Origin: Occallatibacter savannae
Lineage (GTDB): Bacteria > Acidobacteriota > Terriglobia > Terriglobales > Acidobacteriaceae
DNA: 64,000 nucleotides
Assembly: GCF_003131205.1 (NCBI RefSeq)
Contig: NZ_QFFY01000001.1
Span: 434,001 to 498,000 of the forward strand
Direction: 5' to 3'
Under the pieces are notes generated by a model. The model did no database searches, was not told the DNA's origin, and saw only the letters and a program-made list of their open reading frames with translations. Position numbers and translations under genes: made by a program. Shown here one piece after another: positions 29,513 to 35,129 of the stretch (the first letter of the stretch is position 1; the number at the start of each line of letters is the position of its first letter).

Positions 29513-30439
29513 CCTCAGAGGGCCTCCTTTGCATACGACGTCTCGGATCGAAGCGGTCTTCATCGGTACCGCATGACCGGGCTCTGTTAGCATCCGTAGC
29601 CACAACCAGTCGTGCACTCGTACCAGCCGCGAAGAGACTGGCTGAGCACGCTCGAGTGACTTCGTCAAAAGGTGGGCCGCAGCTGATTCGGAAGCCGCTT
29701 CACCTACTTGTACTTCCGGGAAAGCTTCTGCCTCAATCGATTGCATCGCGAAGCGGTGAGAAGAAGACGGCACGATCCCGCCTTCTACTTTTCTGGCCGT
29801 CATCCTCTCAAGAGCAAACACAAGTGCCGTATCCACGCATTGTTCAAAGCCGAGGTACAAGAACTTCCCCGTTGCATCTACTAGAGGCAGCGCTCCGAAC
29901 GCTTCCAGGAGAGTTCGCGGGAGAACCTGGTAACTGGCCGTCAGTCCGCCGTTCCCCATTGGAAGAGCCGGACACCCCCACTGGATACTCAATGCTCGGC
30001 AGACAAGCGCCTCCGTCGTCGCGCCCTGGCGAATAAGCCATTCGCCAATTCGGAATTGACCTTCTTTCCTTTGCGCTTCGACTGCTCGTCGCAACTGGCT
30101 GCTGGTGATCCAGCCTTGTTCAAGCATGAGGAGCCCAAGCGGAACTCTGTGGTGGTACGGCTTCGCTTCCTGTACCCAGTCCCCAAGTTCTCGACTGACA
30201 GCGAGTTGGAGACGTGCCAGGGTGCATTCCGGAGAGCATAGCCAGCCCCCTTCAAACAATGGGCGCTTTCGACTGCGAAACAGTTGAAGCCAGCCAGAGC
30301 GGCATGCGGGATTCGAACAGTGCCGGATCAGCGCCGAACTTCTATCTGCGTCCGCTCCCCAACGGATCGGTGTCGGCTGCCAATCTCCATCCATGCGTGC
30401 TGACAAGGGCTGTGTGCTACCTAACCTCAGAATAGGCAT
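29510..30439 (-). CDS. Orphan protein with Cys motifs and an MshEN/GspE N-terminal-like domain
   Basis: 309 aa; CSNPAC..CSPEC; VPLGLLMLEQGWITSSQLRRAVEAQRKEG-QFRIGEWLIRQGATTEALVCRALSIQWGCPAL resembles the GspE/PilB N-terminal domain; no ATPase domain. Confidence 0.6.
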   Translation of the reverse strand: MPILRLGSTQPLSARMDGDWQPTPIRWGADADRSSALIRHCSNPACRSGWLQLFRSRKRPLFEGGWLCSPECTLARLQLAVSRELGDWVQEAKPYHHRVPLGLLMLEQGWITSSQLRRAVEAQRKEGQFRIGEWLIRQGATTEALVCRALSIQWGCPALPMGNGGLTASYQVLPRTLLEAFGALPLVDATGKFLYLGFEQCVDTALVFALERMTARKVEGGIVPSSSHRFAMQSIEAEAFPEVQVGEAASESAAAHLLTKSLERAQPVSSRLVRVHDWLWLRMLTEPGHAVPMKTASIRDVVCKGGPLR

Positions 30440-31179
30440 CGTATGCTCTCCAGCCGTTTCTGCGGTGCAGCAACCTCGGTAACTCGGAGTCCAAAGTTCC
30501 CGTCGACCAGAACCACGGCTCCACGCGCCACAATCTTGTTTCCAACGATCAGGTCCACGGGATCAGTAACCTGCCGGTCGAGTTCCACAACATCGCCCGG
30601 GCCCAATTCAAGAATTTCGCCCAACGGCATCTCGCAACACCCAAATCGCAAAGCAGCTTCCAACTCGACATCGAGCAGAAGCTCGACTCCGGGACTGAGC
30701 TCTGGCTTTGCGACAACCTCGCTGTGGCTTTCCGCACTGATGGACCCGCTCTCCTGAAGCTTCCGGGCCGTGAGTCCGTCGTAGACGGAAACACACCAGG
30801 ACCGTTCGGTCGTCTTCAACTGAAATACACGGCTCGCTGTCGCTCCTGCTTTCCCTGTACTGAAAGAAGTGACCTGGCATTTCTTCCCCGCCGTGGCCAG
30901 CAACTCGCCGGCCGCTGCTTCTGCCACTTCTCGCAGCAGTTCGCCCCAAGACGTTGTTTGCTCCGGGCCCTGTCCCAGCAGAGCCGCTTCGAGGATGAGG
31001 GCGTCAAGGGAGACAGTAAATCTGCCCTCGACTTCTCCTTCTACCTGCGCAGTAAACGCGAGTTCGCCGGTCGGCCGGGCGCCACTATCGCTGGCCTCCA
31101 CAAAACTGGGCTCGCCGGCTAACGCCTGCGGAAGAAGCGATCCCGCTACCGATATCCAGCAATCAAGAAACGTGTTCAT
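30427..31179 (-). CDS. fliN: FliN-like SpoA-domain protein with N-terminal extension
   Basis: 250 aa; C-terminal LLLDVELEAALRFGCCEMPLGEILELGPGDVVELDRQVTDPVDLIVGNKIVARGAVVLVDGNFGLRVTEV. Confidence 0.87.
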   Translation of the reverse strand: MNTFLDCWISVAGSLLPQALAGEPSFVEASDSGARPTGELAFTAQVEGEVEGRFTVSLDALILEAALLGQGPEQTTSWGELLREVAEAAAGELLATAGKKCQVTSFSTGKAGATASRVFQLKTTERSWCVSVYDGLTARKLQESGSISAESHSEVVAKPELSPGVELLLDVELEAALRFGCCEMPLGEILELGPGDVVELDRQVTDPVDLIVGNKIVARGAVVLVDGNFGLRVTEVAAPQKRLESIRCLF

Positions 31180-32140
31180 GCTCTCCGGCCCTATTCAATT
31201 CCTGCAGGCGGCCTCCACGGTGAGTGCCATGCTGCACCACCTCCACCGTTCCCAGTTCCTGACCTCCAACCCGCCACTCCGCAGCGACTGCGGTTGAGAT
31301 TCCAAGACGCAGCACATCGCCTTCTCGCAACGATTCGATCTCACGTGTCGCAATGCGTACACTCGGCAGTTGGACAGATGCACCGAGACGGATTCTCCCC
31401 GCCGCAGCCCGGATTCGAGCGCGCGTCTCAGGAGAGTGGCGGTGGCGACGACCCCAGTCGGTCGTCAGACGCCGCAGAATCGTGTTTGCCACAACTGCCG
31501 GAAACGCAAGATTCAGCAGACCTGAGCCCTGCGGCATTCGGATCTCGAAGGTCAGGCAGAGCGTCTTTTCATTCACCGACATGATGCGTGCTACCTGAGT
31601 CTGCATCTGGCGCTTTTCAAAGTTGAAGCTCAGACCGACGGACTGCCAGGCGGACGTCAATTCCCGGCAGATAATCTCGACGACGCTCCCGAGAATAGCT
31701 TCTTCTATGTCGGTAAGTTCTCGCAGTGGCCCTTCTTTCCCATTCCCCCCCAGCAACAGGTCGATGATCGGGGGAGCCAGTCCCAGGTCGAGTTGCAAAA
31801 TCGAGAGCGCTCCAAGGGGCTCCAGCCGCACCGATGTTACATAGCTGATCTCCGGGATGCGCATGAGGAACTCGCTGAATGGAATCTGCTCCGCCGATAC
31901 GAGGTTGACTTGGAAACGGCAGCGGAGCCAAGCCGCCAGGTTGTGTGTGAGATTGCGCGCAAACAAATCATTGAGCATGCTGATCGCTCGCAATTGCTCA
32001 TTTGAGATCTGTCCCGCGCGCGCAAAGTTGTATGCTACCGCGGCGCGCACAGCAGCGGAACCGCTCGCTGGCTCCGGAGAAGAAGCCCGTGCAGCACGGA
32101 ACAACGCGTCGATCTCATCCTGCTTCAGCAACTTTTCCAT
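31163..32140 (-). CDS. fliM: Flagellar motor switch protein FliM
   Basis: 325 aa; MEKLLKQDEIDALF, MLNDLFARNLTHNLAAWLR, EFLMRIPEISYVTSV. Confidence 0.92.
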   Translation of the reverse strand: MEKLLKQDEIDALFRAARASSPEPASGSAAVRAAVAYNFARAGQISNEQLRAISMLNDLFARNLTHNLAAWLRCRFQVNLVSAEQIPFSEFLMRIPEISYVTSVRLEPLGALSILQLDLGLAPPIIDLLLGGNGKEGPLRELTDIEEAILGSVVEIICRELTSAWQSVGLSFNFEKRQMQTQVARIMSVNEKTLCLTFEIRMPQGSGLLNLAFPAVVANTILRRLTTDWGRRHRHSPETRARIRAAAGRIRLGASVQLPSVRIATREIESLREGDVLRLGISTAVAAEWRVGGQELGTVEVVQHGTHRGGRLQELNRAGEHEHVS

Positions 32141-33023: not shown

Positions 33024-34535
33024 TCAACGGACAGTTCCCGCGGGTCTCAGCCGTATCTCTGGCGGAATCTCCGCCGCGGCAACCACCGCCAGCATGGGTA
33101 TAAGCGGTTCCAGCCATCGCTTTACGTGATAGCGAGCCGGACTCGGACAAAGGAGCACAGGGAGTGCCGAATTGTGCGTAGAACTTATAAGAGATCTCAA
33201 AGAATCGATCAGACGCCGGACTAGAGGAACTCCGGAACTCGACTTCCCGGACAACAGACGATGAGAACTGTCCGGCGAAAGAGCCTCCACGATCTCCTCC
33301 TCGAGCGCAGGATCCAGTAAGAGCACGGGCAGTTGCCCGTCCGAGTCCAACAACGGTGCAACCAGCCGTCGTCCAAGCGCCTGGCGAACACCCTCCACGA
33401 GCACCACAAGGTTTTTGTTGACCGCAGCCGTCTCAAGCAGGGTCTCCAGGATGGTTCCCAAGTCTCGGATCGAAACTCGTTCCCGAAGCAGCTGCTCGAG
33501 GACCCGGTTCACCTCGCCCAGCGTAAGCAGCTTCGGAACCAGTTCCTCCAGCAGTTTCGGATGGCTCTCATTGAGCGAATCCATCAGCCGCTTGGCTTCA
33601 GCCCTGCCCAGAAGTTCATGTGCATGCCGCCGGATCATTTCCCCGAGGTGGGTCGTCATGACTGTCACTCCATCAACGACCGAATAGCCGGCTGCAACTG
33701 CCTGCTCCTCCAGTGCGGGCGAAATCCAGGTTGCCGGTACTCCGAATGCCGGATCCCGCGTCTCCCGTCCCGGCAGCGGACGGCGATTTGGATCGGCGGA
33801 CACCGCCAGAACCTGCCCGCCATCCAGTTGCCACCGCGCTACCTCGATTCCTCTCAGCGAGATCACGTACTCTCGCGGATGGAGACGAAGGTTATCTGAG
33901 ATGTGCACAGGAGGTATAAGAAATCCCATCTCTGCAGACAGGTGACGCCGCAGGGCACGTACGCGGTTCAGAAGTGTCCCGCCTTGCTTCTCGTCCACCA
34001 GGGGGATCAACTGGAATCCGATCTCGAGCGTCAGTTCCTCGACGCGCAACAGTCCTGCGAGATCCGCAGAAGGCGCCTGCTCTGGCTTCTTCTGCTTCTC
34101 AATCGCCCCATCCTCCGAAGCCGATCCTTTCACCGGCTCCTTGGCCATTCTTCTTCCCGCCCAGACCAGCCCACCGCCCACCAGCAGAAATGTCGCGCCC
34201 GGCAGTCCCGGGATTAAACACATCGCTGCACACACTCCACCTGCAACGTACAGCGTAGAGGGACGCGCGAAAAGCTGTTGCCGGATTTCGGTCCCGAGCA
34301 ACGCAGCGGAGTTCGCTCGTGTCAGCGTGATTCCACCCGCAACCGAAACGAGCAGCGACGGAATCAGCGTCACCAGGCCGTCCCCGACGGTCAGCACCGT
34401 ATAGGTTCGCGCTGCCTCGCCAATTGCAACCCCCTGCTGCAGCGTTCCGATGAGCAATCCGGCTACGATATTGATCGCCGTGATCAGAATGGTCGCCATC
34501 GAATCGCGCTGGTTGAAGCGCGCCGCACCATCCAT
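33024..34535 (-). CDS. flhA: FlhA, C-terminal part (remaining TM helices and cytoplasmic domain); separated from the N-terminal part by one in-frame TAA
   Basis: 503 aa; begins MDGAARFNQRDSMATILITAINIVAGLLIGTLQQGV, which continues the FlhA sequence in the same frame as the 34542..35129 ORF. Confidence 0.9.
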   Translation of the reverse strand: MDGAARFNQRDSMATILITAINIVAGLLIGTLQQGVAIGEAARTYTVLTVGDGLVTLIPSLLVSVAGGITLTRANSAALLGTEIRQQLFARPSTLYVAGGVCAAMCLIPGLPGATFLLVGGGLVWAGRRMAKEPVKGSASEDGAIEKQKKPEQAPSADLAGLLRVEELTLEIGFQLIPLVDEKQGGTLLNRVRALRRHLSAEMGFLIPPVHISDNLRLHPREYVISLRGIEVARWQLDGGQVLAVSADPNRRPLPGRETRDPAFGVPATWISPALEEQAVAAGYSVVDGVTVMTTHLGEMIRRHAHELLGRAEAKRLMDSLNESHPKLLEELVPKLLTLGEVNRVLEQLLRERVSIRDLGTILETLLETAAVNKNLVVLVEGVRQALGRRLVAPLLDSDGQLPVLLLDPALEEEIVEALSPDSSHRLLSGKSSSGVPLVRRLIDSLRSLISSTHNSALPVLLCPSPARYHVKRWLEPLIPMLAVVAAAEIPPEIRLRPAGTVR

Positions 34536-34541
34536 CGCTCC

Positions 34542-35129
34542 TTAAAACTCCGCCTCGCGCGCGATCGCGAGTCGCCGGCGTCTGGCCTCCGCTTCATCGA
34601 TGAGCCCGGCGTTCATGTCCGCGTCGATCGCCATCTGCTTGCCCGGCAGCGCGTCCAGCGTGAATCTTGCCGTCACTTCAGCCGTTCGCACCGCTCCATG
34701 CGAAACCACCAGGAACTGGATTGCGACCAGAGCCAGAAACAGCACGAATCCCACAATGTAATTCCCGCCCACCACAAACTGACCGAATGCTTCAATCACC
34801 TTGCCCGCGGCCGCCGTCCCCTCAGAACCGTGCAGCAGAATCCTTCGGCTTGAGGCAAGATTCAGTGCGAGTCGAAACAGCGTCAGCAGGAGCAACAGCG
34901 TCGGGAAAACGGACAGTTCGACTGCTCGACGAATCTGGACTGAAGAGAGAAATACGATGACGGACGCTCCCATGGAGAGCGCAAGCAAAAGATCGAGAAC
35001 CGGCGCAGGGAGCGGAACCAGCATCACGAATATCACGCTGATGGCGCCAATCGGCAACAGATACTCTCGAAATTGCAGGAGAATACCGGCGGGGGCCGGG
35101 TTCGCGATTGAGACGCTGGCAGTGCTCAT
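34542..35129 (-). CDS. flhA: FlhA, N-terminal part (first TM helices and FHIPEP signature), ends at in-frame TAA
   Basis: 195 aa; [22 protein letters not shown]-type [65 protein letters not shown]. Confidence 0.92.

What the first reader, a model, noticed from the sequence alone, without database searches (positions are those of the whole stretch)
33024..35129. flhA interrupted by a single in-frame TAA in the conserved FHIPEP region, with the frame otherwise intact
Seen: ORF 34542..35129 ends ...[11 protein letters not shown], and two codons later in the SAME frame (GGA GCG) ORF 33024..34535 begins ATG GAT GGT (MDGAARF...). Joined, they read ...RREAEF-[stop]-GAMDGAARFNQRDSMATILITAINIVAGLLIG..., which matches canonical FlhA ([22 protein letters not shown]...) residue for residue; the stop sits where Tyr is normal, so TAC/TAT to TAA explains it. 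Combined length is about 701 codons, normal for FlhA. No frameshift or other decay is visible and neighbouring flagellar genes are intact. The stop lies in a string TTTTAAGGAGCGATG, where AAGGAG resembles a Shine-Dalgarno (spacing to ATG only 2 nt), so termination-reinitiation giving a two-piece FlhA is conceivable. Alternatives are a very recent loss-of-motility mutation, a sequencing or assembly error, or stop readthrough.
Basis: partly seen in the sequence, partly recalled or inferred. Interest (0 to 1): 0.82.

Follow-up and report, generated by a model that had tools for sequence, protein, structure and literature searches.

The report
Flagellar export gene with nonsense mutation
In one soil acidobacterium the flagellar export gene flhA carries a single stop codon where all relatives encode an amino acid; the rest of the gene is undamaged, so this is most likely a very recent loss-of-motility mutation rather than a new two-part gene.

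Summary
The only flhA of this genome (window 33024-35129, minus strand) holds one in-frame TAA at 34542-34544, at the Tyr195 position of the solved 692-residue FlhA. The frame is otherwise open from start to end. Of 77 flhA loci surveyed, 65 have Tyr here, the rest Cys, Val, His or Phe, and only this genome has a stop. No other listed match in 60 near relatives or 300 family genomes carries one, so a conserved two-gene design is excluded. Both halves are as conserved as in the nearest sister (34 versus 33 lineage-specific changes), and the other flagellar genes compared are intact, so the stop is recent. In 397 genes compared (139,254 codons) there were two clear nonsense codons (flhA and an L-threonine aldolase gene) and no clear frameshift, which makes a generally poor assembly unlikely. 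None of 51 tRNAs reads a stop. The apparent Shine-Dalgarno comes from ordinary Gly-Ala codons and sits 2 nt from the ATG. Best reading: a young nonsense allele with probable loss of flagellar export. A single-base assembly error or partial function by reinitiation cannot be excluded. Brucella melitensis 16M flhA is a published precedent. Interest is low to moderate.

The parts
33024..35129 (-). flhA, whole gene including the interrupting stop (about 700 codons)
   Evidence: Single FHIPEP (PF00771) match in the genome, 784 bits, profile 1-656/657, one TAA inside; ORFs
34542..35129 (-). flhA piece 1: N-terminal transmembrane part up to the FHIPEP loop, equivalent to residues up to 194 of the solved FlhA
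34542..34544 (-). in-frame TAA at the Tyr195-equivalent codon
34533..34543 (-). AAGGAG-CG-ATG: Shine-Dalgarno-like string formed by the stop plus Gly-Ala codons; spacing 2 nt
33024..34535 (-). flhA piece 2: from the Met198 equivalent; holds the equivalents of D199, D208, D249 and the whole cytoplasmic domain
   Evidence: residue roles from PMC3139655 and PMC13308203
35126..36283 (-). flhB, intact, overlaps the flhA start by 4 nt (ATGA)
   Evidence: PF01312
36284..38072 (-). fliR, fliQ, fliP, intact
   Evidence: PF01311, PF01313, PF00813
32176..33150 (-). sigma-70-type factor (FliA-like), intact; start uncertain, listed ORF overlaps the flhA end
   Evidence: Sigma70 r2, r3, r4
30427..32140 (-). 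fliM and a FliN-like protein, intact
   Evidence: PF02154 and PF01052

Best explanation
A single base substitution turned the Tyr195-equivalent codon (TAT or TAC) of the only flhA into TAA, very recently, in the sequenced strain or its near ancestors. Translation ends after 195 residues, before the essential D208 and the cytoplasmic docking domain. Without FlhA the flagellar export gate cannot work, so flagellum assembly is expected to fail, or to be much reduced if some ribosomes restart at the ATG six bases after the stop. Shown: the stop, its uniqueness, intact flanking sequence and neighbours, unrelaxed divergence of both halves. Inferred: loss of function, and a change in the living strain rather than in the file.
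For: One flhA copy with one TAA. Among 77 flhA loci the codon is TAC 42, TAT 23, TGC 4, GTT 3, CAC 3, TTC 1, and TAA only here; nearest sister TAT. No listed match in other genomes of the 60 near relatives or 300 family genomes has an internal stop. Lineage-specific amino-acid changes in flhA 34 here versus 33 in the sister, dN about 0.09-0.11 with silent sites near saturation, other flagellar genes 260 versus 275: no relaxation yet. Other flagellar genes compared are open; FliF and flagellin intact. The genus loses flagella repeatedly: three relatives at least 96% complete have no match to FlhA, FliF or flagellin. A second isolated nonsense codon lies in an L-threonine aldolase gene, so nonsense alleles of dispensable genes occur in this strain. 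The stop removes D208 from piece 1; D208A, D208K and D208N abolish function in Salmonella (PMC3139655).
Against: The organism is probably Occallatibacter savannae A2-1c (inferred from the 16S identity pattern), which PMC12935467 lists with motility '(+)'; if that strain swims with flagella and carries this allele, the allele is not null. Silent sites are near saturation, so the selection test cannot see very recent relaxation. A single-base error in the file would look the same.
Confidence: 0.64

Rival explanations
1. Single-base sequencing or assembly error, or a minority culture variant taken up in the consensus; the living strain has an intact flhA.
For: No read data are available here; all relatives have a sense codon; both halves and the flagellar cluster look fully functional; the likely species is listed as weakly motile.
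Against: The event is a substitution, not the indel typical of poor long-read assemblies. In 397 genes and 139,254 codons of this genome there were only two clear internal stops and no clear frameshift. For random substitution errors only about 4-5% create stops (own estimate), so two stops would imply dozens of other errors in the same stretch. Both hits are in genes a cultured cell can probably do without.
Confidence: 0.2
2. Functional two-piece FlhA: ribosomes end at TAA and restart at the ATG six bases on, giving TM1-4 and TM5-8 plus cytoplasmic domain as two chains that assemble.
For: Stop and ATG are six bases apart in one frame, with AAGGAG next to them. The break falls in the cytoplasmic FHIPEP loop between TM4 and TM5, and a start at Met198 keeps D199, D208 and D249. 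The flhB-flhA junction overlaps by 4 nt, so coupled starts are probably used in this operon. Likely species listed as weakly motile.
Against: Spacing of 2 nt is at the low edge of the spacings at the 37 gene starts examined in the window. AAGGAG arises from Gly-Ala codons also seen in relatives with uninterrupted flhA. Met198 is conserved for the protein, not for starting. No relative shares the split. The next in-frame ATG would lose D199 and D208. Residues at the break line the central charged ring of the pore (PMC13308203).
Confidence: 0.12
3. Stop-codon readthrough or suppression gives some full-length FlhA.
For: The site tolerates Tyr, Cys, His, Phe and Val, so an inserted amino acid could work. 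Suppression was proposed for the stop-bearing fliF and flhA of Brucella melitensis 16M (PMC7410920).
Against: 51 tRNA genes were found and typed, none with a stop anticodon. UAA is read by both release factors (general knowledge).
Confidence: 0.03
4. Conserved two-gene flhA architecture.
For: None beyond the sequence itself.
Against: No fetched or listed relative has the stop.
Confidence: 0.01

Closest known systems
Brucella melitensis 16M flhA (BMEII0166-67)
   Same: flhA split into two annotated ORFs by a one-nucleotide substitution giving a premature stop, relative to a motile relative (PMC7410920).
   Different: Brucella carries several other broken flagellar genes and still builds a flagellum in some conditions; here flhA is the only broken gene among the flagellar genes compared. 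The position of the Brucella stop was not compared.
Laboratory motility mutants with flhA nonsense or indel alleles (Vibrio alginolyticus YM19 flhA Q295*, Campylobacter jejuni evolved lines)
   Same: Single-event disruption of flhA with the rest of the regulon mostly intact (PMC10956519; PMC7677240).
   Different: Those were seen against a known parent and with a phenotype; here neither is at hand.
Canonical FlhA export gate protein (PF00771; PDB 36hw, 7amy)
   Same: Both pieces together match end to end.
   Different: One stop codon at the Tyr195 equivalent.

Membership tests
FlhA / FHIPEP family (PF00771) | End-to-end match to the family profile | tested here: met
   Profile 1-656/657, 784 bits, well above the 29.1 cut-off; pieces 260.6 and 488.3 bits
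FlhA / FHIPEP family (PF00771) | Single uninterrupted reading frame | tested here: not met
   One TAA inside
FlhA / FHIPEP family (PF00771) | Placed with flhB, fliR, fliQ, fliP of a flagellar cluster | tested here: met
Recent nonsense pseudogene | Disabling stop absent from close relatives | tested here: met
Recent nonsense pseudogene | No accumulated further damage | tested here: met
   Open frame on both sides; equal divergence to sister
Recent nonsense pseudogene | Loss of protein function | not testable with these tools
   Needs motility or export assay
Recent nonsense pseudogene | Base supported by reads | not testable with these tools
   No reads held; indirect check of assembly quality
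Conserved split gene | Same split in sister species | tested here: not met
Stop-codon reassignment or suppression | tRNA with a stop-codon anticodon | tested here: not met
   51 tRNAs, none with an anticodon TTA, CTA or TCA; unusual tRNAs below the model cut-off would be missed

The most novel reading that the evidence does not exclude
The strain is motile and assembles a working FlhA nonamer from two separately translated chains, cut in the FHIPEP loop and restarted at Met198, showing that the proton-driven export gate tolerates a break beside its charged ring.
Probability: 0.1. Interest if true: 0.6.

Novelty: new member of a known kind. Interest (0 to 1): 0.2.

Why it matters
As it stands it is a clean snapshot of what is probably the first step of flagellum loss in a genus where some species lack the flagellar genes tested altogether, and a caution for genome-based prediction of motility, which would count this gene as present. 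If the split protein worked, it would be a natural test of how FlhA couples proton flow to export.

Tried and rejected
Conserved split: rejected by relatives. Second flhA copy that could stand in: none. Suppressor tRNA: none. A codon-usage scan for other nonsense codons found flhA and the threonine aldolase gene but could not tell them from genes that follow in the same frame, so homology was used instead. Excess of nonsense codons compared with sister genomes: two against none in a similar number of codons, too few to mean anything. Motility in the literature as a test: weak, because Occallatibacter bavaricus JP12 is reported non-motile with an uninterrupted flhA. Papers describing an engineered split FlhA: two searches found none. 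One alignment call failed on coordinates and was not needed.

Full report
What is there. On the minus strand of the window a flhA gene runs from 35129 to 33024. Its frame holds one stop, TAA at 34542-34544, then GGA GCG ATG and an open frame to the end. The two pieces (195 and 503 aa) match Pfam FHIPEP at positions 1-161 and 165-656 of 657. In the whole genome (6.28 Mb, 18 contigs, estimated 100% complete) this is the only match, 784 bits, with one TAA inside. Aligned with the solved 692-residue FlhA (PDB 36hw), piece 1 ends at residue 194 and piece 2 begins at Met198, so the stop is at Tyr195.

Is it shared? No. In 77 flhA loci surveyed (some species occur twice, from two searches) the residue is Tyr in 65, Cys in 4, Val in 3, His in 3, Phe in 1 and a stop only here. 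The nearest sister, the MAG SZAS-3, has TAT. In 60 near relatives and 300 family genomes, of which 146 have a match, every listed match in another genome is reported without an internal stop. This excludes a conserved two-gene architecture at the level of genus and family.

How old is it? Recent. Using Occallatibacter bavaricus as outgroup, flhA gained 34 amino-acid changes on this lineage and 33 on the sister lineage; other flagellar genes 260 and 275. dN between the two is 0.085 (N part) and 0.110 (C part) with silent differences of 0.62-0.63. So both halves were under normal purifying selection until lately. Silent sites are near saturation, so the test cannot tell a mutation in the laboratory from one many generations old. 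The other flagellar genes compared are intact, as are FliF and flagellin elsewhere on the contig.

Is it real? Reads are not available. As an indirect check, about 1.3 Mb of this genome was compared with sister proteins: 397 genes and 139,254 codons gave two convincing internal stops, flhA and an L-threonine aldolase gene (TAG where the sister has CAG, contig 1 position 1102397), and no convincing frameshift; a third flagged stop lies in a weak 120-residue alignment and looks spurious. The same test on O. bavaricus gave no convincing stop in 393 genes. A generally poor sequence is therefore unlikely, but one wrong base at this site cannot be excluded.

Could it still work? Readthrough: all 51 tRNA genes found were typed and none reads a stop. 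Reinitiation: the ATG lies six bases after the stop with AAGGAG two bases before it. The string comes from Gly-Ala codons, since five relatives with an uninterrupted gene also read GGA GCG ATG. Spacings at other starts in the window mostly run from 3 to 12. A start at Met198 would keep D199, D208 and D249; the next in-frame ATG would lose D199 and D208. D208 is essential in Salmonella FlhA (PMC3139655), and D199, R147, R154 and D158 line the central channel in the recent structure, where the FHIPEP loop forms a cytoplasmic cup (PMC13308203). A two-piece protein would have to assemble with a break at that place. It is possible, not supported.

Which organism? One relative (G002) is a single contig of 5,987,865 bases, the length given for O. 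bavaricus JP12. The 16S identities among G000, G272, G005 and G002 follow the published table if G000 is O. savannae A2-1c, G272 O. riparius and G005 Terracidiphilus gabretensis. This is an inference. The same paper lists O. savannae motility as '(+)' and JP12 as non-motile, although JP12 has an uninterrupted flhA, so phenotype reports do not decide the matter.

What is known. Nonsense and indel alleles of flhA are familiar: Brucella melitensis 16M (PMC7410920), a Vibrio alginolyticus mutant (PMC10956519), evolved Campylobacter jejuni (PMC7677240). In the genus studied here three relatives at least 96% complete have no match to FlhA, FliF or flagellin, so flagellum loss is part of its history. 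The finding is an ordinary event caught early, with a small chance of something more.

Noticed in passing
G000 contig 1, position 1102397 (L150, outside the window): A second isolated nonsense codon: L-threonine aldolase gene with TAG where the sister has CAG (Gln), 92% local identity on both sides.
   Followed up: partly
G004, G012, G032 (same genus): Three relatives, 96-99% complete, have no match to FlhA, FliF or flagellin: flagella seem to have been lost as a unit.
   Followed up: partly
G016 contig 151, 8738-10604: flhA of another genus member appears as two matches about 4 bases apart with profile positions 355-395 missing: perhaps an independent break, perhaps a MAG error.
   Followed up: no
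G002 (O. bavaricus JP12, 5,987,865 bp): Reported as non-motile although flhA is uninterrupted and flagellar genes in the compared stretch look intact.
   Followed up: partly
G000 contigs 3, 4, 6 (L117, L141, L187, L200): Four tRNA-Cys(GCA) genes, three of them nearly identical, which is more than usual.
   Followed up: no
G008, G013, G030, G337: Some genus members carry two flhA genes, in G008 about 375 kb apart on one contig; one type has Cys at the Tyr195 site.
   Followed up: no
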